From assembly GCA_019096065.1 (NCBI GenBank), contig JAGUCH010000007.1, forward strand, positions 2,874,501 to 2,938,500: 64,000 nucleotides of DNA. The letters are read 5' to 3'. Both the position numbers and the translations under genes were made by a program. Shown here piece after piece: positions 43,911-63,988 of the stretch (position 1 is its first letter; each line of letters begins with the position of its first letter). Source of the DNA: Paracyclopina nana. Lineage: Eukaryota; Arthropoda; Copepoda; Cyclopoida; Cyclopettidae. A model generated the notes under the pieces. It was not told where the DNA came from, did not search any database, and saw only the letters and a program-made list of their open reading frames with translations.

Positions 43911-46590
43911 TCATGGCACGCTGTTTATCCTGATGGTCTCATCAATCCAGCTTAGGTAGTCTCCAACTTTTGTGTACACCTCTGGTAGCCCCCGAAAGCA
44001 GCTTTTGGCGCCATTGCTGAGCAGACCAATGATCGTCCAGCCGCCATTGTTGACATCGAACGTGACCAATGGGGAGCCAGAGTCACCAGGACAGGCTGAG
44101 CCTGCAATGCCATTGTAATCATCCAGGCTCACCGCGCACATTTTACCCCATCCTTGCTGACTTGAGCACCCGCGTGTCTTGGCGCCATCCACAACCTGAA
44201 ACAATGAAAGTATTACGCTAGTGTTTGTCATATGCATTATTTAACGTATCAAAGAACAAGCAAGCATACCCAAATTATATAATGTGAGTAGTTTTTCTAC
44301 TACTCACGAATTAGGCTATGTATAAATAAGCCTGTCGCTAAACAAATCCAGCCTAATGAATGAAGACGAAATGTCTAATACTATCTTATGTTGTATGTTT
44401 ATCTGTTGCTTTTTCAACATGTGCTTTAGCTTCTCTCCTCTACAAACTTTGACTTTGAATGAATGCCTTTGTCAGCAGCCTCTCAATTCAACATGGCTGC
44501 TGTCATTAGAAGTTGGAAGTCATCCGAATTCTACAACACCCGGATAAATGCTTTTCACTTCTCTCAGATTATGAGCACTTTGGTCAAATTGATTGGATTT
44601 CTGGTTTGCATTGAAAACCGATCATCCAAAGAAAAATGCATGAGCCTAGTTCACCTTCAATGGCAGTAATTAAATCATAGTACATGTTACTTACTGCCAA
44701 TTCCGCTCCTTTGAGGGTGGCACTAGGGCCCTGATCAGGGGCCTGAATGCCCCAGCCCGACACATAGGCCTGGTATCCCATGTAGGAGAAGTCGCTTTTT
44801 GGCAGCCTCACCGGCTGGATTTTGTCTGAGAATCTCACTCTGCGGCTCAGCTTCACCAGGGCTATGTCGTTGGTGAAGGTCACATCCTGGCCTTGCTGTT
44901 GAGGCGGCCGTTGGTGTCGAAGGCCTCCTTGGCGCCTTTGGATGACTTGTCTTCGCCTCTGATGTTTTGACGAGGGCCCAAAGAGGAATTCCCAAAAGGA
45001 CAAAGGCCCACCACCGACCTCTTCGAATGGTCCAATTGGCGTTTGGTGGAGGCCGCGTCTTTCAGGGGTTTGTTCACAGCCTCCACGGCCTCTGAATTGG
45101 CCGTTGGATCGTTTCTTGAAACTGCACTGAGGCTGGCCATAATCATCACGACCGATGGCTCGTTCAGCTATGATCGGAAGGCCGTCCTCGCCATAAAGGC
45201 CGTGGCTGCCCAAGTAGACCTGGAAACATGTGTGAAGTTGGTTTTGCAATGCGTAAAAATGGCCAGAATGGAGCTTACCTTCATGAAAATGGCCGGAATG
45301 CCCTGTCCAACCTCGAAGACTTTGCTGCCAGGCAAATCTGGAGGATGCCATGTTATGCAGTGTCGAGCTGTCAACACCCATTGATCGCTGATCAAGGCTC
45401 CACCGCAAACACGTTTTTTGAACTGGCCAGATTGTGTGTTTGATGGGAAAGTGGTCTAAAAGAGAACAACGAAAAATATGGTATATATTTTTTTTTTCGC
45501 TCAGCTGGGAAATTAATTATCTGTAATATGACGTAAACAGGCTACAATTGCATTCATGGATATGCTAGCGTTTTCAGAAAAGTGGAAATATGCTGAAAAT
45601 GTGCATAAATATTGCTCTCAAGACTTTTTCAGGTTCCCAATCTGCTCAAAAGCTCAAACATCCTGAAAATTGTGGAAATGCTTGTCATATTTGTCAATGC
45701 CTGTGATATTTGTAAATGTCTGTAATATTTGTAAATATCTGAATTGTCAAAGGACAAGAACTTTTTTGTCAATTATAACTTTGATCACGATTTTCCTATA
45801 GATGCCCTACTTTGTAAATTATTTGTCATTACAAAAACTGATGCAGTTTTTTAAGTGGCCCTTCAAAACATAAATGAGGTTTTCTTGAGGATCCCTCAAG
45901 TTAATAGCATTTCTAAAGCTCAAAATATACGGCTTTTTGTCACTAGGTGAAATATGCATTTTGTACAGTTCAACCAAAAAGTTTGCCAAGAGTCATGAAT
46001 GATTTGGCGCAAAGTTTTTACGTGGTATACTAAATAAACGCTGACATGCAGCAAGTGCCTAATAAATATATGTGTCAGGGCTACGGGGAAAAAAGGCACA
46101 ATTTCACGGTTGCAATGATGGATGAGGCATAAAAAGAAATCAAAACCGTAACGAGTCCATTAAAAAGGGGGAAAATTTGGAAATCTGGGGAAATTTCCAG
46201 GTGTAATTATATCCAAGTGACAAGCGAGGCCACATAGCTACAGCACAAATATGCCATAAAAATCAGGATTCTGTCACACCAAACATTGAAGGGGAAAAAG
46301 CAATCTTGGCTGAGAGCATCATTATTTTTCAATTGGATTGAAAGTAAACCAACTAAACAGAGTGTTTGACCTCAGATCCAAAATCCAATTATGTTTGCTG
46401 TGCAGACTCTTCATACCTTGAGTTTAACCATCCAGGGAAATTCGTGGGGCTGTAAATGCCAACCGCGATAAATTCTGTCTATTTCGCCTTGATGCGGTGC
46501 TTGAAAGGCCATAACGGCAGTGGTGAGATAAAAGGCCACAAAGCTGAAGAAGGACCTTGGAATGGCCTTCCGCAAAATGGTCATGGTCAT
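43911..46590 (-). CDS. Secreted trypsin-fold serine protease with internal insertion
   Basis: Four coding exons, 46590-46417, 45455-45279, 45219-44695, 44195-43911, all in phase 0, give 386 residues. A signal peptide (FFSFVAFYLTTAVMA) precedes a short pro-segment ending EIDR; cleavage would free a new N-terminus IYRG in place of the usual IVGG. The triad is intact: His in LTARHC, Asp in TNDIALVKL, Ser in CPGDSGSP. The residue six before the active Ser is Ser rather than Asp, which predicts chymotrypsin-like rather than trypsin-like specificity. Between the His and Asp regions, after VYLGSHGLYGEDG, about 80 extra residues appear, rich in Gln and Arg. That segment (about 45170-44890) is also open in a second frame with better-looking codon use, so it may mark a frame problem or an acquired insert. 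No CLIP domain. Role is unknown; digestion or immunity are possible. Confidence 0.88.
45678..45734. repeat. 19-bp tandem repeat, three copies
   Basis: Three adjacent 19-base units (45678-45696, 45697-45715, 45716-45734) with consensus ATGyyTGTnATATTTGTmA. They lie in the first intron of the protease gene. A local minisatellite with no evident function. Confidence 0.75.
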
Positions 46591-52184: not shown

Positions 52185-52560
52185 CCACAAGCACAGAGTG
52201 TTGGTTATCTGGATCGCGCAGCTGTCATTCACAACTATCGTGCGAAGCTTTATGTGCGGTCAGCCACTACAGGTGTCATCAAGGAAATCACGGTCAACAC
52301 GATTCGGAATTATAATAGCAACATTTCTCCACCGGATGTGCCGAGGCTGCAAGCTAGGTATCCTCATTTAATGTCCATCGACTTTGAAGTCTATGAAGAT
52401 CGGCCGTGTGACATGTTGTTGGGATTGGATAATCTCGATTTAATGGCAGCGATGCGTGCTGATGTGTGTGGCAATCCTGGTGATCCAGTCGCTAGGCAAA
52501 CTCAACTGGGATGGACAGTCGCAGCAGGACAAATCAGGCTCAAGTTCACGGCTCAGCATT
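52185..52560 (+). pseudogene. Pao-type aspartic protease region, cut off from Gag and Pol
   Basis: In the Gag frame after the TGA, the sequence is open and protein-like (SATTGVIKEITVNTIRN, MLLGLDNLDLM, TQLGWTVAAG), the usual link between Gag/protease and RT in Pao elements. It is separated from Gag by one stop codon and from Pol by a change of frame near 52540-52570. I see no canonical slippery heptamer at the change, so mutation is more likely than programmed shifting. Confidence 0.7.
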
Positions 52561-55500
52561 TCTGGTCTCTAAGGAGGTCGAAGTGGAGCAACTTCTTCAA
52601 CAGCTTTGGGAGCTAGAAAACTACCCAGAGTTGGGAAAACAGAAGCGTTTGATCTCTGTGCAGGACCAAAAGGCCGAGAAAATAGTGCGAGAAGGTTTAT
52701 TTCGAGTTGACAAACATTATGGCACGAGCGTGCCATGGAAGGATTGGCCTGATCCACCAGACTTGCCGAGAAATTACTTCCAGGTCAAAAAATGGCAATC
52801 CGGACACGAAGCTGAGCTCAAGAAGAACCCCCTAATCTGGGAGCAGTATTGCGCGAATTTCCAAGAATGGATAAATGAAAAATACATAACCGCGGTTACA
52901 AACGACGTTTTGTCCGGGTTTTTCATTCCTTGTTTTGGAGTCTTTCGTGACGACTCGCTTACAATGAAACTGCCTGTAGTCACTGACTGTGCGCGTAAAT
53001 TCGGCTCACCTCGTCGATCATTAAATGATATGATAATTACGGGTCCTAAATTGCAGAATGACATCCGGGATGTATTGCTCCAGTTCCGCTCGCATAAATA
53101 CGCGTTTACGGCGGATATTGCGCGCATGTATTTGCAATTCCACATAAGCAAGCCTGATCAAAAATACCATCGCGTACTCTTCGAAGGTCAAGCGTATGAA
53201 TTCACAAGGTGGCCGTTTGGCAACGTGGCTGCTCCATTCGCGACGCTTTTTTGTCTGAACACTCACTTCCGCGACACAAATCGCCCGGATCTAATCGAGG
53301 TTGTGCGCCAGTCTTTGTACATGGATGATCTTTTGCCCTCGCGCCCCTCCGAGGTTGTGTTGGAGCAATTGTTCCGCGATTTGTGTCAAGCTTGCGAATC
53401 GGCTGGCTTGCAGTTGCGTAAACTAGTCACAAATTCCATCGCATTCCGATCTCTCGTTTTGTCCGGGTTTTTCATTCCTTGTTTTGGAGTCTTTCGTGAC
53501 GACTCGCTTACAATGAAACTGCCTGTAGTCACTGACTGTGCGCGTAAATTCGGCTCACCTCGTCGATCATTAAATGATATGATAATTACGGGTCCTAAAT
53601 TGCAGAATGACATCCGGGATGTATTGCTCCAGTTCCGCTCGCATAAATACGCGTTTACGGCGGATATTGCGCGCATGTATTTGCAATTCCACATAAGCAA
53701 GCCTGATCAAAAATACCATCGCGTACTCTTCGAAGGTCAAGCGTATGAATTCACAAGGTGGCCGTTTGGCAACGTGGCTGCTCCATTCGCGACGCTTTTT
53801 TGTCTGAACACTCACTTCCGCGACACAAATCGCCCGGATCTAATCGAGGTTGTGCGCCAGTCTTTGTACATGGATGATCTTTTGCCCTCGCGCCCCTCCG
53901 AGGTTGTGTTGGAGCAATTGTTCCGCGATTTGTGTCAAGCTTGCGAATCGGCTGGCTTGCAGTTGCGTAAACTAGTCACAAATTCCATCGCATTCCGATC
54001 TCGCACAGACAAAAACCTTCTGTCCCCAGGGGATAATTCCTTGCCCACCAAAGTTCTGGGCTGCTATTGGTTACCCGACGTGGATCTGTTAACCTTTAAA
54101 GCAGCAAATATATGCGACGATGACAAGGTGTTCACTAAGCGCAACGTGTTCAGAGCAAATGGCCTGTGCTTCGATCCAACAGGATTCTTGGAACCAGTAA
54201 CCCTTAAAGGCCGATTGTTGCTCCAGGACGTTTGCAACATCGATGGGCTTGTGGATTGGGACGAGAAGATTACGGGAGACAGCCTCTATAAAAGGTGGCG
54301 TCAATTCCTTGATGAGTTAACTCAAGTTGACAGGTGTCAATTCCCGCGTCAGATTTTCCAGGGAGATCCATCAGATGCAAGCTTGGAGGTTTTTGTGGAT
54401 GCTTCCACCCGCATGTACTCAACCGTGATTTATGTGCGTGAAGTTTTGCCAACAGGGATTTCTGTGACTTTCGTCACATGCAAGCGAAAATTATGTAAAA
54501 AGGGACAAAAATCAATTCCGGAAAAAGAATTGCTCGCCGCGCACTTGGGGTCAATTTTAGCTACGCATGTTGGCGCGCAGTTGAACATTACAGTCCGTCG
54601 ATTTTGGTCTGACAGCACAACTGTATTGAAATGGTTCTTCAAACCCATGTCAATTGATATCCCTTTCGTGTCGCGCCGTGTACTTGAGGTGCTGGAGCTC
54701 ACTTCTCAAGACCAGTGGAATTATGTGTCGTCTGAGGAAAATCCTGCAGATATCGCGACAAAAGGAGTACCGTTGGAAGCCCTTCTGCACAATGGCCTTT
54801 GGGAACATGGCCCGGAGATCTTGCGTGAGGAAGAACCGTCATCAATGCGGCCGGATATTCAGCTCTTGGACGAAAACAAAGCCGTCGTAGTTCAAGGATA
54901 TAATGCGGTATTTGTTGCTACTCGTGCCGCCAATCTTGTTCGCACAATGGTTGATCGATCACTGGTGGCGGATAATTATGACATGCACGAAAATCAAAAA
55001 GAGGCTGCTAGATACCTTTTGCAGTTAAGGGAGATATTCGACCTCAGTTTGGGTATTCATAAATGGTCCGTGATCTTGCGAACGCTTTATCGCAAAAAGC
55101 GCCCCATTTCGTATCTCGCATGCGCAAAGCGGATGATTTCAAGAATAGTTCAAGCCAACTGCTTTTCTAAGGACTTGGAGCATTTGTTATTGAAAGGCCA
55201 CTGGAAAAAAGGCAGCGAATTGGAAAAGTCGGCAGCATACATCAGTCAAGATTGTCTCATCCACGCGAGAGGCCGGCTAGACAGTAGCAACCTACCGACG
55301 AGGGTGAAGAGGCCAATCATGTTTCAAGACCATCAATTAACCTACAACTTGCTAGAGTTTTGGCACCACGGTGTTGGACACGATGTTGGACAAAATCAAT
55401 TCGCGATGATCATACGTCAAAAATTCTACGTGCCGAGGTTGCGACAAATTTTGCGCAAAATCTTCCGTCGTTGCTCTGCTTGCCAAAAGATACGTGGCAC

Positions 55501-56491
55501 TCCTCTCTACCCAGAAATGGGCGACAGGGTAATCCACGGCATCGACTTGCAACCGTTTAGCCATATTTCGATCGATTATTGCGGACCTTTTTCAATCTCG
55601 CGTCCAAGGGGCCAAGCAAAGGATCACAGATACGTTCTGGTCATTGTTTGCCAACAAACAAAAGCGTGCCACTTCGAAGACGCGTATGATCTGTCAACAG
55701 ATGCATTCGTAAATTCTTTCCGGAGGTTCACAGCTCGTCGAGGTTACCCAAAATATATTCGCTCGGATCAAGGAACGAATTTTGTCGGGGCTGCAAATCT
55801 CATATTCGCAAGAGACAAAGATAGGGTGCGCAAAATTGATTGGGAGGTAGCTAGAAAGCAAACGTGCCCCATTTTCGGTTTTGAGTGGTCATTTTCGCCC
55901 GCATCTGCTCCGGAATTCAATGGACTCGCGGAAATTTTTGTCCGCCAATTTAAAAAGCATTTGTCCGCAAATTTGACCCAAACTTGGCGCGAGGACACCT
56001 TCCGTGCGGCGTTGTCGCAAGCAGAGGAAATAATCAACTCCAGGCCTTTAACCTATGTACCTGAGGATTTGGATCAGTCCGCCAAGGTCGTGTCGCCAAA
56101 CTCGTTTCTGATGTGCCCTCAAACACATGCACCCGTGTTCGACAACAGTGCCCTTTCAACTTTGGACCAATACCGCAAAGTTAGGCACTTCAAGAACCAA
56201 TTGTGGCAAAAATGGATGCAATCCGTGTACCATGAACTGGCATCGAGGCCAAAATGGCGTACCTTGAGGAAAAACATGAAAATTGGCGACGTTGTACTCA
56301 TTCGCGATCGCGGTCCTTTCAGCCACAGGTCAAGCTGGCCATTGGGAATTATTGTGGGCATTCAAGAAGACAAAAACAATATCAACAGGACCCTAAGCAT
56401 TAAAGTCGTTGACAAGAGCAAAGAAAATTCCCACAAAATCATTGTCGAGGCAGTCACCAATGTCGTACCCCTCAATATGAATATAGAATGA
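52511..56491 (+). CDS. pol: BEL/Pao Pol: RT, RNase H, integrase
   Basis: 1326 codons. Order: linker (VEQLLQQLWELE); reverse transcriptase with SLYMDDLL; RNase H (EVFVDASTRM, KELLAAHLG, FWSDSTTVLKWF); integrase HHCC zinc region (HHGVGH..CSACQK) and DDE core with Asp in SIDYCGP, Asp in RSDQGTNF and Glu in EFNGLAE; and a C-terminal Pao domain (GDVVLIRDRG..WPLGII). The RT core is present twice in tandem (52906-53454 and 53455-54003), giving two YMDD boxes (53318-53329 and 53867-53878). Without the repeat the protein would be about 1143 residues. The frame differs from that of Gag. A working enzyme is doubtful. Confidence 0.95.
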   Translation: MDSRSRTNQAQVHGSAFLVSKEVEVEQLLQQLWELENYPELGKQKRLISVQDQKAEKIVREGLFRVDKHYGTSVPWKDWPDPPDLPRNYFQVKKWQSGHEAELKKNPLIWEQYCANFQEWINEKYITAVTNDVLSGFFIPCFGVFRDDSLTMKLPVVTDCARKFGSPRRSLNDMIITGPKLQNDIRDVLLQFRSHKYAFTADIARMYLQFHISKPDQKYHRVLFEGQAYEFTRWPFGNVAAPFATLFCLNTHFRDTNRPDLIEVVRQSLYMDDLLPSRPSEVVLEQLFRDLCQACESAGLQLRKLVTNSIAFRSLVLSGFFIPCFGVFRDDSLTMKLPVVTDCARKFGSPRRSLNDMIITGPKLQNDIRDVLLQFRSHKYAFTADIARMYLQFHISKPDQKYHRVLFEGQAYEFTRWPFGNVAAPFATLFCLNTHFRDTNRPDLIEVVRQSLYMDDLLPSRPSEVVLEQLFRDLCQACESAGLQLRKLVTNSIAFRSRTDKNLLSPGDNSLPTKVLGCYWLPDVDLLTFKAANICDDDKVFTKRNVFRANGLCFDPTGFLEPVTLKGRLLLQDVCNIDGLVDWDEKITGDSLYKRWRQFLDELTQVDRCQFPRQIFQGDPSDASLEVFVDASTRMYSTVIYVREVLPTGISVTFVTCKRKLCKKGQKSIPEKELLAAHLGSILATHVGAQLNITVRRFWSDSTTVLKWFFKPMSIDIPFVSRRVLEVLELTSQDQWNYVSSEENPADIATKGVPLEALLHNGLWEHGPEILREEEPSSMRPDIQLLDENKAVVVQGYNAVFVATRAANLVRTMVDRSLVADNYDMHENQKEAARYLLQLREIFDLSLGIHKWSVILRTLYRKKRPISYLACAKRMISRIVQANCFSKDLEHLLLKGHWKKGSELEKSAAYISQDCLIHARGRLDSSNLPTRVKRPIMFQDHQLTYNLLEFWHHGVGHDVGQNQFAMIIRQKFYVPRLRQILRKIFRRCSACQKIRGTPLYPEMGDRVIHGIDLQPFSHISIDYCGPFSISRPRGQAKDHRYVLVIVCQQTKACHFEDAYDLSTDAFVNSFRRFTARRGYPKYIRSDQGTNFVGAANLIFARDKDRVRKIDWEVARKQTCPIFGFEWSFSPASAPEFNGLAEIFVRQFKKHLSANLTQTWREDTFRAALSQAEEIINSRPLTYVPEDLDQSAKVVSPNSFLMCPQTHAPVFDNSALSTLDQYRKVRHFKNQLWQKWMQSVYHELASRPKWRTLRKNMKIGDVVLIRDRGPFSHRSSWPLGIIVGIQEDKNNINRTLSIKVVDKSKENSHKIIVEAVTNVVPLNMNIE
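52906..54003 (+). repeat. 549-bp tandem duplication within RT
   Basis: Copies 52906-53454 and 53455-54003, offset 549 bases (183 codons, in frame). No difference between copies was noticed on reading; even the reverse-strand open frames are identical. It spans from VLSGFFIPCFGVF to IAFRS, including the palm and YMDD box. Confidence 0.92.
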
Positions 56492-56704
56492 CGTTTAAAT
56501 TTCGCGCCGCGACTCGGTTCTCGTCTTGCATACGAGACGGCGCGATATCGCAAAAAAGATGTACTAAGCGCGGTAATCACATTAGCTTTGCAGAACCGGG
56601 TTCTTTTCTCGTCAAGTTATGCCGTCAGCTTCACATCCGGTTCCTCCGATCGCCGGCGTCCAGTCCGCAAATATTGTTATCGTTGGAAATCCGTCGTCAT
56701 CGCC

Positions 56705-59700
56705 ATGAAAAGGGCATCATCCCCGGCCTCGTCATCGTCTAGTGGCTCCCGGTCATCATCCCCAACGTCGACAACCTCAGTGGACGAAGAAAACCGTCCT
56801 CAGGACCCGGTGGAGCCAAACATTTGCTCCTTCGCGTTTCGACACCCGCCGCTGACCAAGCCTTCAAAATCCGCATCGCCTAAACGGCCACGGCTCACTG
56901 CCAAGCGATCTCGGCCCATCCCCAGCCCGTCTCGCAGTCCAAGCCCAAGAAGCAAGGCCACCATTAGTCAAAAAATCGAGCAAGAACGACGACGACTTCA
57001 ATACAAATTCGGCGTGGAATCGGTATATTTCGATGAAGAGCTGCTCGACCTTCTCGACAGCAACGATCCTGGTAAATTCGTTTCCGTATACTCGTCGCCC
57101 AATGTTTTCCTGGCAGGCTCGGTCCACATTTATTACTATCACGGCCGCGATCCTGAATCTCGTAGCAAGCATTCGCGCAGAAAGAACAAAAAAACCGACG
57201 CTCAAAAATCAAACTTTTCGCGAGTTATGTTGTTCGCCGAAAATTTGTCAGTAGGAACGACAATGCTTTTAGCCCACCCTTGTCTCAATGATGCGTGGCT
57301 CATTTACTGCATGACTCAGAAGAGCGACCCCGAGCTAGGACCCGCGGAAAACACGGCCCAGGCAAAAATTTGGATGCAAAAGCTATCGGACATCACTTAT
57401 CGCGATCTTGGTCATTTGAAGGCGCGTGCGAACAAGTCCTCCAAAGAATACGCGCGGCACACCATGGCAAAAATAAAAACCCCATCAGCCGGTGGGGCTA
57501 GAGTAGCGTCAGGCGTTGATGTCGAGCTTTCTCGCGAACCTTCGAAGCGTGAAAGGCGGACTGGGGTCACACAAAACCTCGTCAATCGCCCTGAAACGCA
57601 GCCGCGAATCTACTTATGCACGGAAGCCTCCACGAGCACCGACACCGGAGATTTTGTAGTCATCCCGTCACACGCCGCGCGGGCTATGCAAACGTATTTC
57701 AAATCACACGGAATCGACGTTCCCGGATTTAGTGAGATCGAAGTTCAGGCTGCGGGTGAAGATTCTGGGGAGGTCCTGTTTGGTCAGTCTTCTAGGTTTG
57801 TCCCCGCGATTGAGCCGGATCGAGTTGTCGTTCTGGAATCCTCAGACGAAGACGCACCAGACAGAATAATCATCGAAGAGGAGGAATATGTAGTCATCGA
57901 TGAAGTGACGCCTCCAGTTGCGGGCACGGTCGCAGAAGTTCCCGCAGAGCAGCCAGTTTTCGAGCCTCCACGGGACGACGCCCCTGATATCTCGACGCCT
58001 ACACGTACTGGATTGAGGAAAAAGGAGTTCGGCCCACAATCGGGTCGGCTAAGCCCTTCGCAATTGACACCGAGAACTTTACTTCGCGAGCAAAGGGCTC
58101 AGCAAAAGGCCGAAAGGTGTGCACGCTCGTTAAGTCCGGCAACAGACTTTACACGCCCACGCACACCTATGCCATTGGTCAACATTCCTGAAGATCAAGC
58201 TATTGAGGACATCTTGTCACTCCACCCCGCCAGCCACGACAAATTCAGCGACGAAGAATCAATCAGGTCAGTTCGGTCATCTTTGCGTCGCGACAGAAAT
58301 GTAGTATTGCGTGGGGGAAAACCAGTTGAACAAAAATGCGTCCTCGCTATCGCCAACGCTCGGTATCTCATCGGCCAGCGACGCGATCCTGATTGCCCTG
58401 TCAATGAATGCGCCCTCGCGGGTAATGGTTTACGCGTCAGTGACATCGAAACGCATAATCAGCGGATGTTTTCTACTATCTCGGTTCAGGCAGCGCGTGT
58501 TCAAACGCCCACGAACGGCCCTCGCGAATTCACCGTAGCGCGCCCTCCGCAAATTGTGCATTACAACCGGCGTAGCTCAGTCAATAAGGCCCAATTTGAT
58601 CATCTCATGGCTAAATCACAGGTCATGAATGAAATTCAGCAATTCGGCATCGCCTTTGTCAAGCTCGTCGAGCATCATTGCGGATTCATGGACCGTCTGC
58701 GTCGCGAAACACCGGCATGGAATCAAGCGTTTTACGGCCTCGTAATTTCCTCGCTAAATAATAAATCGGTCATGATACACGTTGGGTGGGACACGAAAAC
58801 TGTGCGCGAGGTGGATATTCCTCTATTCGTGCGCAATTTGTTCAAGGACCCGTCGATCATTAAAGTCGCTCAAAATGCGCGCGATGTCATGTTCAGGGTA
58901 GGAAGCATTCCAGGGACTGCATATACAATGCGTCATTTTGTTGAAGCTTCCAACCTCGCCTTAATGGCATTCACGCAACCTGGCACCGCGTTTGAAAATA
59001 TGCAGTACGATACTGAGTTCTTGGCGTTGAATCTCCAATTCCCCTACATTTTTTGTCGTGCGGAGCAAATGACAAGAGAAACTGCGCATGACCCTCGATA
59101 CTTGGCGGTGGCTGATCAGTGGAACTTCGCCACAAATTTCACAGCCTGGTCCAATCCAATGCGAGCAGCACTTGTGTGGGATGCGGCGGTACATTTTGAA
59201 CTGTTGCGTCGTATGGCCATCCGAGCAGCAGCGCTCGAAGATATGGGTAATGGCGCAGATATTATCAGGATCATGCACTGCTTGTGTTTGCGGATGATAG
59301 GGCTGGATATTCCTTTCAAAAACCCGGCAAATGTATCACAAGGAACAGTGAGGCCGTTTGGTTCTTGGTTCGAAACGGATGACTATCTAGACGAGCAGCA
59401 GCGTCCCCAAAAACATCGCGCGTGGCCTTTATTTTTCTCCCACAGCACAAGCTGGATGTCAGTAGAAGAACTACACGAGCGGGTTCAAAGTTTCTTGACT
59501 GCTCGCAGATGGCAACGGTGCTTTGACACGCTTCCTACTCAATCGCGTCAAAAATTAACGCTGATGTTCCAAAGCCACCCCTACGAAATCAACGCGCGCG
59601 CATATTTGATGCTACATGCTGGCGAAGGGGCTTATTTCCCTCATTGCTGCGCGCACTGTGGCGACGAAGAGCACCTCACCGAAAATTGCCACATCAAAGG

Positions 59701-60031
59701 ATCCGACCTGCAATGTAAATACAATTTGTGCCTAACAGACGGGCATAGGGATGTCGTCTGTGCACTATTGCGCACAAGGTGCACGTTATGTTTTTTCCTG
59801 GGCCATAACAGGGATCATCACGCCGACCATCCTTTCATCTGTCTCATCGAGGAGTTCCGCGCAGCCTTTGCTAAAGGCCGCGTCACGAGTCGCCTATTGG
59901 CCTCCTCCTCCGTCTCCCAATACCAAGTGGACACAAACGAGAATGGCTATGTCGTGTTCGCGGATGCAAATGAAGAAGAGAGACAGGCTCTGAAGACCAA
60001 CTACGACATTGGACCCTTCGATCCCATTTAA
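56705..60031 (+). CDS. Third ORF of the BEL/Pao element, zinc-knuckle protein
   Basis: 1108 residues from the ATG at 56705; the open frame extends up to 56588 but the earlier start has poor context. Residues 1-90 are Ser/Pro/Arg-rich with SR-like repeats and basic nuclear-signal-like clusters. The centre (about 650-900) is globular, with KDPSIIKVAQNARDVMF and later WSNPMRAALVWDAAVHFELL, a layout reminiscent of DEDD 3'-5' exonucleases but without evident catalytic acids. The C-terminus has CAHCGDEEHLTENC (59648-59689), CKYNLCLTDGHRDVVC and CTLCFFLGHNRDHH: two CCHC-type knuckles then a CCHH one, like the Gag tail. It holds no signal peptide or membrane segment, so it is not an envelope protein despite its position. 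It ends 14 bases before the 3' LTR. Function unknown; a second Gag-like protein is the best guess. Confidence 0.8.
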   Translation: MKRASSPASSSSSGSRSSSPTSTTSVDEENRPQDPVEPNICSFAFRHPPLTKPSKSASPKRPRLTAKRSRPIPSPSRSPSPRSKATISQKIEQERRRLQYKFGVESVYFDEELLDLLDSNDPGKFVSVYSSPNVFLAGSVHIYYYHGRDPESRSKHSRRKNKKTDAQKSNFSRVMLFAENLSVGTTMLLAHPCLNDAWLIYCMTQKSDPELGPAENTAQAKIWMQKLSDITYRDLGHLKARANKSSKEYARHTMAKIKTPSAGGARVASGVDVELSREPSKRERRTGVTQNLVNRPETQPRIYLCTEASTSTDTGDFVVIPSHAARAMQTYFKSHGIDVPGFSEIEVQAAGEDSGEVLFGQSSRFVPAIEPDRVVVLESSDEDAPDRIIIEEEEYVVIDEVTPPVAGTVAEVPAEQPVFEPPRDDAPDISTPTRTGLRKKEFGPQSGRLSPSQLTPRTLLREQRAQQKAERCARSLSPATDFTRPRTPMPLVNIPEDQAIEDILSLHPASHDKFSDEESIRSVRSSLRRDRNVVLRGGKPVEQKCVLAIANARYLIGQRRDPDCPVNECALAGNGLRVSDIETHNQRMFSTISVQAARVQTPTNGPREFTVARPPQIVHYNRRSSVNKAQFDHLMAKSQVMNEIQQFGIAFVKLVEHHCGFMDRLRRETPAWNQAFYGLVISSLNNKSVMIHVGWDTKTVREVDIPLFVRNLFKDPSIIKVAQNARDVMFRVGSIPGTAYTMRHFVEASNLALMAFTQPGTAFENMQYDTEFLALNLQFPYIFCRAEQMTRETAHDPRYLAVADQWNFATNFTAWSNPMRAALVWDAAVHFELLRRMAIRAAALEDMGNGADIIRIMHCLCLRMIGLDIPFKNPANVSQGTVRPFGSWFETDDYLDEQQRPQKHRAWPLFFSHSTSWMSVEELHERVQSFLTARRWQRCFDTLPTQSRQKLTLMFQSHPYEINARAYLMLHAGEGAYFPHCCAHCGDEEHLTENCHIKGSDLQCKYNLCLTDGHRDVVCALLRTRCTLCFFLGHNRDHHADHPFICLIEEFRAAFAKGRVTSRLLASSSVSQYQVDTNENGYVVFADANEEERQALKTNYDIGPFDPI

Positions 60032-62789: not shown

Positions 62790-62795
62790 TATAAA
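62790..62795 (+). promoter_or_regulatory. TATA box of the peptide-precursor gene
   Basis: TATAAA at 62790-62795, about 34 bases before a TTCAGAC initiator-like site near 62822-62824. This fits a start about 100 bases upstream of the ATG. Confidence 0.6.
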
Positions 62796-62857
62796 TCGAG
62801 GGCAGCCTCAGCCTCGAGTCTTCAGACAGACAAAGGCCCAAAGTGGCAACACATCAC

Positions 62858-62926: not shown

Positions 62927-63988
62927 ATGAATTCGACTTCAACTAGCAGCAGACTGTGGGCATTGACATTGGTCAAGATCTGGCTTTTTTCCCTGGTTCT
63001 CGTGGTTTGTGAGGCCACGCCGCTCTACGACAACGCCGAGTATGAGGTATATAAATACTTTGATGCAGCATTTGCATGGGCATTGGATTAATTACGGTGA
63101 TCATAGGATGCTCCGGTAGATGAGGAGGCCAGGTACTTCAGCCTCGAGGACTACCTCGCGAGGCTGATGGCGGCCAGGAACGGCCTCTACGGGCCGTACC
63201 ACGAGGGCAACTACGGCGAGCTGATGGTGCCGGACTTGGCGAACGACAAGCGATCCTCGTCGCGGGCCGAGAACAATTTCCAATTGAGGGTTCGCCGAGG
63301 CCAGGGCTTCTCCAAGCCCATGGCCGAGTCCAACTTTCAGTTGCGCGTGCGGAAAGACCTGTTGGACAGGTTTCGCCAGGTGCCTCAAATTAGGTCGTCC
63401 GCTGCCGAGAGCAACTTCCAGTTGAGGGTTCGCAAGTCACACCCGAGCATGGCTGAGAACAACTTCCAGTTGCGAGTGCGAAAAAGTGACGAGCGCCCAT
63501 CGGCAGAAGAGGAAGAAGACTTTTTCGGGGAAAATCGGTGAGATGACGCAGCCAACTTTTATTGGGGCTGTACACTCATGCATTATTCTCAGGTATCGAC
63601 AGGTGCCTCAAATTAGGTCGTCCGCGGCCGAGAACAATTTCCAGTTGAGGGTTCGAAAGGGGTTCCCGAGCAGTGCTGAGAACAATTTCCAGCTGAGAGT
63701 GCGCAAAGCTGACCCGTACATGCTGAGCGAGGAGGAAGACGGCGACGACAACAGGTTAATAGCTTTTGCTGCCGCGATCAAATCACCAAAGCCTAATTAC
63801 ACTTGTAAACGCGTTGCAGGCTGCAGAGATCGGTGAGGAGGACGCTGCTTGAACAGATCCGGGACAGGCGATTGTCTGGACAGCGGTCAGCTGCTGAGGA
63901 CAATTTCCAGCTGAGAATCAGGCGAGGCAACAGCGCTCACGACAATTTCCAGCTGAGAGTGCGAAGGTCAGCTGAGTTAGCTGCCTAA
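62927..63988 (+). CDS. Secreted multi-copy peptide precursor, NFQLRVR family
   Basis: Four coding exons, 62927-63046, 63107-63537, 63593-63754, 63820-63988, join in phase to give a complete 293-residue protein. The signal peptide (LTLVKIWLFSLVLVVCEA) spans the first 30 residues. Eight copies of the motif A-E/H-x-N-F-Q-L-R-[VI]-R-[KR] follow; their NFQLR cores start at 63275, 63332, 63413, 63461, 63636, 63684, 63902 and 63944. Each ends in a basic pair, RK or RR, within R-x-R-[KR], so prohormone convertase or furin could release peptides. Spacers are acidic or Ser-rich, and the VPQIRSSAAE spacer occurs twice. None of the repeats ends with a usable Gly for amidation apart from RK/RR-G, where Gly follows the basic site. 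No cysteines in the repeats. I do not recognise the family: it is not FMRFamide, sNPF, tachykinin or orcokinin type. Neuropeptide is the likeliest class; a cationic antimicrobial multipeptide is an alternative. Confidence 0.85.

What the first reader, a model, noticed from the sequence alone, without database searches (positions are those of the whole stretch)
62927..63988. Possible new neuropeptide family: eight NFQLRVR(K/R) copies in one secreted precursor
Seen: a TATA box, signal peptide, four in-phase exons and eight near-identical repeats each ending in a basic processing site, with conserved core N-F-Q-L-R-V/I-R across 293 residues. The core is preserved while spacers vary, which is the pattern of selected bioactive copies. 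Known families with repeated arginine-rich C-termini (sNPF, FMRFamide, natalisin, tachykinin) end in amidated motifs; here no Gly precedes the basic pair, so peptides would be non-amidated. Inference: released products end in ...NFQLRV or ...NFQLRVR.
Basis: partly seen in the sequence, partly recalled or inferred. Interest (0 to 1): 0.85.

Follow-up and report, generated by a model that had tools for sequence, protein, structure and literature searches.

The report
Copepod FQLRV multi-copy peptide precursor
This gene of a small crustacean, most likely a copepod, encodes a secreted protein that is probably cut into eight near-identical short signalling peptides ending in FQLRV, part of a family also seen in other copepods for which I found no published description.

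Summary
Four GT-AG exons (62927-63988) encode 293 residues: a signal-like start and eight NFQLR(V/I)R(K/R) repeats; no second copy was found in the 92-Mb genome. Two protein searches listed 120 proteins, including Lepeophtheirus salmonis LOC121118131 "uncharacterized" and one tagged Tk04049, read from memory as Tigriopus kingsejongensis. The core survives (0.93 identity) while the rest diverges (0.47). Of 622 cores, 588 are followed by two basic residues and 22 end the protein, as FQLRV or FQLRI. This occurs in three protein groups and marks the mature end: FQLRV with a free C-terminus, R(K/R) being the cleavage site. Gly follows 1 of 622, so amidation is not the plan. No Pfam family above cut-off, PDB chain or relevant held paper matches. 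The genome has a separate Gly-bearing FLRFamide precursor. Best reading: a new copepod multi-copy peptide-hormone or neuropeptide family, probably acting on a GPCR. Neuronal expression, mature peptide and receptor are undemonstrated. The two main copepod peptidome papers could not be read.

The parts
62790..62795 (+). TATA box (TATAAA)
   Evidence: sequence
62822..62827 (+). initiator-like TCAGAC, 32 bases after the start of the TATA box; likely transcription start
   Evidence: consensus match only (another, TCAGCC, at 62808)
62927..63046 (+). exon 1 (coding part): start codon, signal peptide, start of propeptide
   Evidence: start codon lies near the start codons of several relatives in the alignment
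62927..63016 (+). signal peptide (residues 1-30, cleavage near CEA|TPLYD)
   Evidence: hydropathy and relatives; cleavage site inferred
63107..63537 (+). exon 2: propeptide and repeats 1-4
63593..63754 (+). exon 3: repeats 5-6; both flanking introns phase 2
63820..63988 (+). exon 4: LLEQIRD segment, repeats 7-8, stop codon TAA
63269..63298 (+). repeat 1 ENNFQLRVRR
63326..63355 (+). repeat 2 ESNFQLRVRK
63407..63436 (+). repeat 3 ESNFQLRVRK
63455..63484 (+). repeat 4 ENNFQLRVRK
63630..63659 (+). repeat 5 ENNFQLRVRK
63678..63707 (+). repeat 6 ENNFQLRVRK
63896..63925 (+). repeat 7 EDNFQLRIRR
63938..63967 (+). repeat 8 HDNFQLRVRR
63842..63865 (+). TLLEQIRD between basic pairs: second conserved segment (LL, two or three residues, IRDRR in 36 of 121 proteins)
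   Evidence: coordinates counted by hand from the sequence
63367..63490 (+). exon 2 segment duplicated to give most of exon 3
63590..63713 (+). duplicate of 63367-63490 (85% identical), covering the splice acceptor and most of exon 3

Best explanation
The gene is a single-copy precursor of a family of short secreted peptides, probably neuropeptides or peptide hormones, found so far only with copepod names. Shown by sequence: spliced ORF, signal-peptide-like start, eight conserved copies each followed by a basic pair, conservation of the copies across many relatives, and relatives whose protein ends exactly at FQLRV or FQLRI. Inferred steps: the precursor enters the secretory pathway; proprotein convertases cut after R-K or R-R; a carboxypeptidase removes the two basic residues; this leaves peptides such as SHPSMAENNFQLRV, GFPSSAENNFQLRV and GNSAHDNFQLRV with a free C-terminus; and these act through the shared FQLRV end, most likely on a G-protein-coupled receptor.
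For: Gene model and repeats. 62 proteins with E up to 10 from the single sequence, and 129 (120 listed, 13 of them the profile's own members) from a profile. 622 cores in 119 of 121 proteins: FQLRV 570; followed by RK/RR/KR/KK 588; by end of ORF 22; by something else 12, one of them Gly. The 22 that end at the core are 18 of one class (such as P0055, P0046, P0095; class by eye), P0061, and P0011/P0015/P0113. Mean identity to the window residue 0.93 for 40 core columns against 0.47 for 145 other columns and 0.40 for 27 signal-peptide columns, over 21 relatives of the same class. pN/pS 0.048 within the gene. Splicing: P0117 and P0005 share the last 78 residues from RVRKARPG but differ just before, as an exon and its spliced product would. 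A dibasic pair lies 1-9 residues before F in 455 of 605 tabulated cores, so many peptides would be short.
Against: No expression, mass-spectrometry or receptor data. Copepod identity of this genome is inferred from two named relatives, one of them named from memory. The sea-louse protein P0062 scores only E 1.6 against the single sequence; its E 7.4e-26 is by construction, as it was in the profile, and the case for it rests on its four FQLR(V/I) copies. One ORF, P0068, ends at FQLRVR, though it looks like a fragment. A free C-terminus is less usual than an amide for arthropod neuropeptides (recalled); known non-amidated exceptions are orcokinin and proctolin (recalled).
Confidence: 0.78

Rival explanations
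1. A diverged FMRFamide-like or short-neuropeptide-F (sNPF) precursor: the copies arose from ...NFLRF-G-basic or ...RLRF-G-basic and lost the Phe-Gly end.
For: NFQLRV resembles NFLRFamide by eye. The layout around the copies recalls insect sNPF precursors (recalled, not tested by alignment).
Against: This genome has a separate precursor with four FLRFG motifs in one open frame (L023). No protein named sNPF or FMRFamide appears among the 120 listed. Gly follows only 1 of 622 cores. The empty sNPF search had no positive control, as the tool itself warned, so it counts for neither side.
Confidence: 0.1
2. A secreted repeat protein that is not a signalling precursor, for example a host-defence peptide store (multi-copy, like bee apidaecin, recalled) or a structural or gland secretion.
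For: Multi-copy precursors with basic spacers also occur for antimicrobial peptides (recalled). No tissue data exclude it.
Against: Five FQLRV peptide forms computed carry a net charge of 0 or +1, unlike typical cationic antimicrobial peptides. A near-invariant five-residue end with variable N-terminal extensions is the usual receptor-ligand pattern (general knowledge). Proteins that end exactly at FQLRV argue for a defined C-terminus.
Confidence: 0.1
3. A known copepod family already described in papers I could not read.
For: The Calanus (2013) and Tigriopus/Lepeophtheirus (2014) peptidome papers are not held.
Against: A 2015 lobster paper names DXXRLamide and FXGGXamide as families known only from copepods; neither fits FQLRV (PMC4696782, passages). 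Full-text searches for FQLRV, NFQLRV, FQLRVRK, QLRVRK, QLRVR and LRVRK gave no peptide of this kind in the listings. The sea-louse relative is still named 'uncharacterized'.
Confidence: 0.12

Closest known systems
FMRFamide-like peptides of arthropods (FLRFamides)
   Same: Multi-copy secreted precursor, basic cleavage sites, NF...LR near the C-terminus
   Different: FLRFamides carry Gly before the basic pair and end in RFamide; here the copies end in FQLRV with no Gly. This genome has its own FLRFamide gene.
Short neuropeptide F (RLRFamide)
   Same: Arg-rich C-terminal end, multi-copy precursor
   Different: No Phe-Gly end; no match in this genome with a recalled fly precursor (without positive control).
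Orcokinins (recalled)
   Same: Non-amidated multi-copy crustacean neuropeptides, also beginning with NF
   Different: Orcokinin core is NFDEIDR (recalled), not NFQLRV. Not tested by alignment.
DXXRLamide and FXGGXamide, copepod-only families (PMC4696782, passages)
   Same: Reported only from copepods as of that 2015 paper
   Different: Both are amidated by name and have other motifs; their sequences were not compared here.

Membership tests
Multi-copy neuropeptide or peptide-hormone precursor | Signal peptide and secretory entry | tested here: met
   Hydrophobic N-terminal segment, peak Kyte-Doolittle 2.59 at residues 15-27; a simple hydropathy test only, no signal-peptide predictor was run
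Multi-copy neuropeptide or peptide-hormone precursor | Several near-identical copies, each followed by a basic cleavage site | tested here: met
   Eight of eight copies of NFQLR(V/I) are followed by RK or RR; 588 of 622 cores across the family by two basic residues
Multi-copy neuropeptide or peptide-hormone precursor | Copies conserved while spacers vary | tested here: met
   0.93 against 0.47 mean identity
Multi-copy neuropeptide or peptide-hormone precursor | Expression in neurons or endocrine cells, and mature peptide detected | not testable with these tools
   No tissue or mass-spectrometry data
FMRFamide-like peptides | C-terminal RF followed by Gly and basic residues | tested here: not met
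   No RFG end in any of the eight copies; separate FLRFamide gene present
Short neuropeptide F | C-terminal RLRF followed by Gly and basic residues | tested here: not met
   Copies read QLR(V/I)R-basic without Phe-Gly
Orcokinin | NFDEIDR core (recalled) | tested here: not met
   Core is NFQLR(V/I) in all eight copies
DXXRLamide (copepod family) | C-terminal D-x-x-R-L-amide, as its name says | tested here: not met
   No Gly for amidation and a different end; precursors not compared

The most novel reading that the evidence does not exclude
FQLRV peptides are an undescribed signalling system shared across the Copepoda, with a C-terminally free ligand, an unknown receptor, and a second conserved peptide-like block (xLIKTPxGYILGR) on the same precursor in several lineages.
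Probability: 0.6. Interest if true: 0.72.

Novelty: new member of a known kind. Interest (0 to 1): 0.6.

Why it matters
Copepods are among the most numerous animals and include the salmon louse. A peptide family that other animals may lack would give a defined, testable ligand for an orphan receptor, a marker for copepod neurosecretory cells, and a lineage-restricted candidate for understanding copepod behaviour, moulting or reproduction. The likely mature end (FQLRV with a free C-terminus) can be read from relatives that stop there, so the right synthetic peptides can be tested first.

Tried and rejected
Amidated product: rejected, Gly follows 1 of 622 cores. Product ending ...FQLRVR: disfavoured, 22 ORFs end at FQLR(V/I) against one at FQLRVR. 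Paralogues in the same genome: none found by protein or by pattern; one search gave one weak hit on contig 8 with 13 stops, taken as chance, and one isolated match on contig 1 that translates as NFQFRIS. An RLRFG pattern for sNPF gave 84 matches against 70 for its control. I fetched 5 of those places, listed the ORFs around two of them (one lies opposite an ORF that looks to me like a nuclear receptor), and scanned open stretches of all five for RF-amide-like motifs: three stretches held one such motif each, none in a precursor-like setting. The FLRFG pattern gave 12 matches against 8 for its control; only the pair on contig 1 lay in a multi-copy frame among the four of these loci scanned. The first, narrower core pattern gave 71 matches against 76 for its control, so it was uninformative by itself. 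The three Pfam hits to the precursor were all below the curated cut-offs (DUF6978, Csm4_C, AGA-YXIM_GBD). A search restricted to the LIKTPHGYIL block of P0013 returned only P0013 itself among 6 candidates, so it says nothing about wider spread. Structure prediction was not run: short flexible peptides would not be informed by it.

The class assignments were made by eye from the sequences, without a tree. The alignment for conservation used the window and 21 of the 120 listed proteins, chosen as full-length members of the same class; columns with fewer than 5 relatives were dropped, leaving 212 of 293 window residues and 40 of 64 core residues. The exon-against-transcript comparison used 10 pairs picked by eye; 9 show an exon-like boundary, P0030 with P0005 shows only internal substitutions.

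Full report
What is there. The window's last kilobase holds a complete small gene. The spliced frame (exons 62927-63046, 63107-63537, 63593-63754, 63820-63988) gives 293 residues and a TAA stop; introns are 60, 55 and 65 bases, all GT-AG. TATAAA at 62790 and TCAGAC at 62822 mark a likely promoter, and the first A(A/T)TAAA signal downstream lies at 64278 in window numbering, beyond the window. The protein begins with a hydrophobic signal-like segment and carries eight repeats NFQLR(V/I)R(K/R).

More than chance. In 2000 shuffles of the protein no 6-mer occurred more than twice, against seven NFQLRV. In the 92-Mb genome a degenerate DNA pattern for the repeat and its basic end matches nine times (control two), eight of them here. 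The eight copies differ at synonymous positions (pS 0.83) and hardly at replacement positions (pN 0.04). Most of exon 3 is an 85% copy of a 124-base part of exon 2; its splice acceptor CAG|G lies where the parent sequence reads CAGG inside the exon, so the exon seems to have been born by internal duplication.

Relatives. A single-sequence search found 62 proteins with E up to 10, the best at 2.8e-47; a 13-sequence profile found 129, of which 120 are listed, the 13 profile members among them. The two searches together listed 120 distinct proteins. Names are scarce. One is Lepeophtheirus salmonis LOC121118131 'uncharacterized protein' (P0062), which scores only E 1.6 against the single sequence but carries four FQLR(V/I) copies. 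One (P0026) bears the gene tag Tk04049, which I recognise from memory as Tigriopus kingsejongensis. Both are copepods. The host genome (10 contigs, 92 Mb) is therefore most likely a copepod with a compact genome. This is inference.

What is conserved. Among 121 proteins (the 120 and the window's) 119 have at least one core, 622 cores in all: 570 FQLRV, 21 FQLRL, 18 FKLRV, 12 FQLRI, 1 FKLRI. The next two residues are RK 445, RR 128, KR 10, KK 5; 22 cores are the end of the ORF; 12 have something else, one of them Gly-Lys. The two proteins without a core are P0119, an exon-like fragment carrying the LIKTNEGYVLGR block, and P0120, a weak match with LLRVRK and MLRVRK. In an alignment of the window protein with 21 relatives of its class, the window residue is kept on average in 0.93 of relatives at 40 core columns, 0.47 at 145 other columns and 0.40 at 27 signal-peptide columns; columns with fewer than five relatives were dropped.

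Where the peptide ends. Twenty-two ORFs stop right after FQLRV or FQLRI: 18 of one class (for example P0055 ...AKRARNFQLRV, P0046 ...RKRKAGSFQLRV), P0061 (...DKRGQFQLRV), and P0011, P0015 and P0113 (...AENNFQLRI). One, P0068, stops at FQLRVR and looks like a fragment. If the product kept the second Arg, terminal copies should keep it too. So R(K/R) is read as the cleavage site and FQLRV as the free end. The caveat is that I could not see the contig DNA, so a cut contig cannot be excluded for any single entry. The N-terminal side is variable: in P0058 a KR pair stands directly before NFQLRV, in the largest FQLRV-ending class SPNFQLRV lies between basic pairs, and here the products would be 12 to 38 residues long if only basic pairs are cut.

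Splicing. Some relatives are uninterrupted full-length ORFs; others look like single exons with intron-like ends. P0117 and P0005 are identical from RVRKARPG to the end (78 residues) but differ just before it, so an intron seems to fall inside a repeat, between NFQL and RVRK, in that lineage. P0105 and P0008 differ just before QEVQDEEP, near the position of intron 1 here. Of 10 pairs chosen by eye, 9 show such a boundary. This supports transcription and splicing of the family but not of this individual gene.

Other conserved pieces. LL, two or three residues, then IRDRR occurs in 36 of 121 proteins, here as TLLEQIRD between basic pairs. A block like xLIKTPxGYILGR occurs in 19 of 121, upstream of the first repeat where there is one, and P0013 and P0026 carry a second, looser copy near the C-terminus. 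Either could be a second peptide or a folding or sorting element. The window protein has SLEDYLARLMAARNGLYG at the comparable place; whether it is homologous is not settled.

Known families. No Pfam family passes its cut-off and no PDB chain matches. The genome has a separate FLRFamide precursor with four FLRFG motifs in one open frame (L023), so the present gene is not the FMRFamide gene, and the absence of Gly here is not a general feature of this animal's precursors. A 2015 lobster paper (PMC4696782, passages only) names DXXRLamide and FXGGXamide as families known only from copepods. PMC12035899 (passages only) lists Tigriopus FLRFamides. PMC6502818 (passages only) covers salmon-louse myosuppressin. 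Full-text searches for FQLRV, NFQLRV and FQLRVRK gave one paper, on soy peptides; QLRVRK, QLRVR and LRVRK gave four papers, unrelated by their titles; both judged from the listing. Other searches on copepod or crustacean neuropeptides showed nothing on this family in what was listed (30 of 71, 7 of 7, 8 of 8, 2 of 2, 20 of 1780, 10 of 11 and 15 of 3058 papers). Two key papers were not held, so 'undescribed' means undescribed in what I could search.

Judgement. The sequence facts are firm. That this is a regulatory peptide precursor is very likely; that it is neuronal is likely; that it is new to print is probable but unproven. It is a new family of a known kind.

Noticed in passing
window 52496-56491 (+): A Pao-type retrotransposon ORF (Pfam Peptidase_A17, RVT_1, rve) contains two identical 300-base copies, as reported, with starts 549 bases apart inside the reverse-transcriptase region (52906-53205 and 53455-53754), so the RT segment appears twice in one open frame.
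   Followed up: partly
window 56492-60031 (+): A 1179-residue open frame directly behind the Pao ORF, ending about 2.8 kb upstream of the peptide gene's TATA box, with no Pfam match above cut-off.
   Followed up: no
P0013, P0026, P0033, P0035, P0039, P0041, P0043, P0055, P0058 and others: A second conserved block like xLIKTPxGYILGR in 19 of 121 proteins, upstream of the first repeat where there is one; possibly a second peptide on the same precursor.
   Followed up: partly
window 63590-63713: Exon 3 seems to have arisen by duplication of an exon 2 segment, with an exonic CAGG becoming the splice acceptor CAG|G.
   Followed up: partly
L023 (G000 contig 1, about 13712096): FLRFamide precursor of the same genome with four FLRFG motifs in one open frame.
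   Followed up: partly
window 44584-45516 (-): Part of a trypsin-like serine protease gene (Pfam Trypsin, E 5.8e-10).
   Followed up: no
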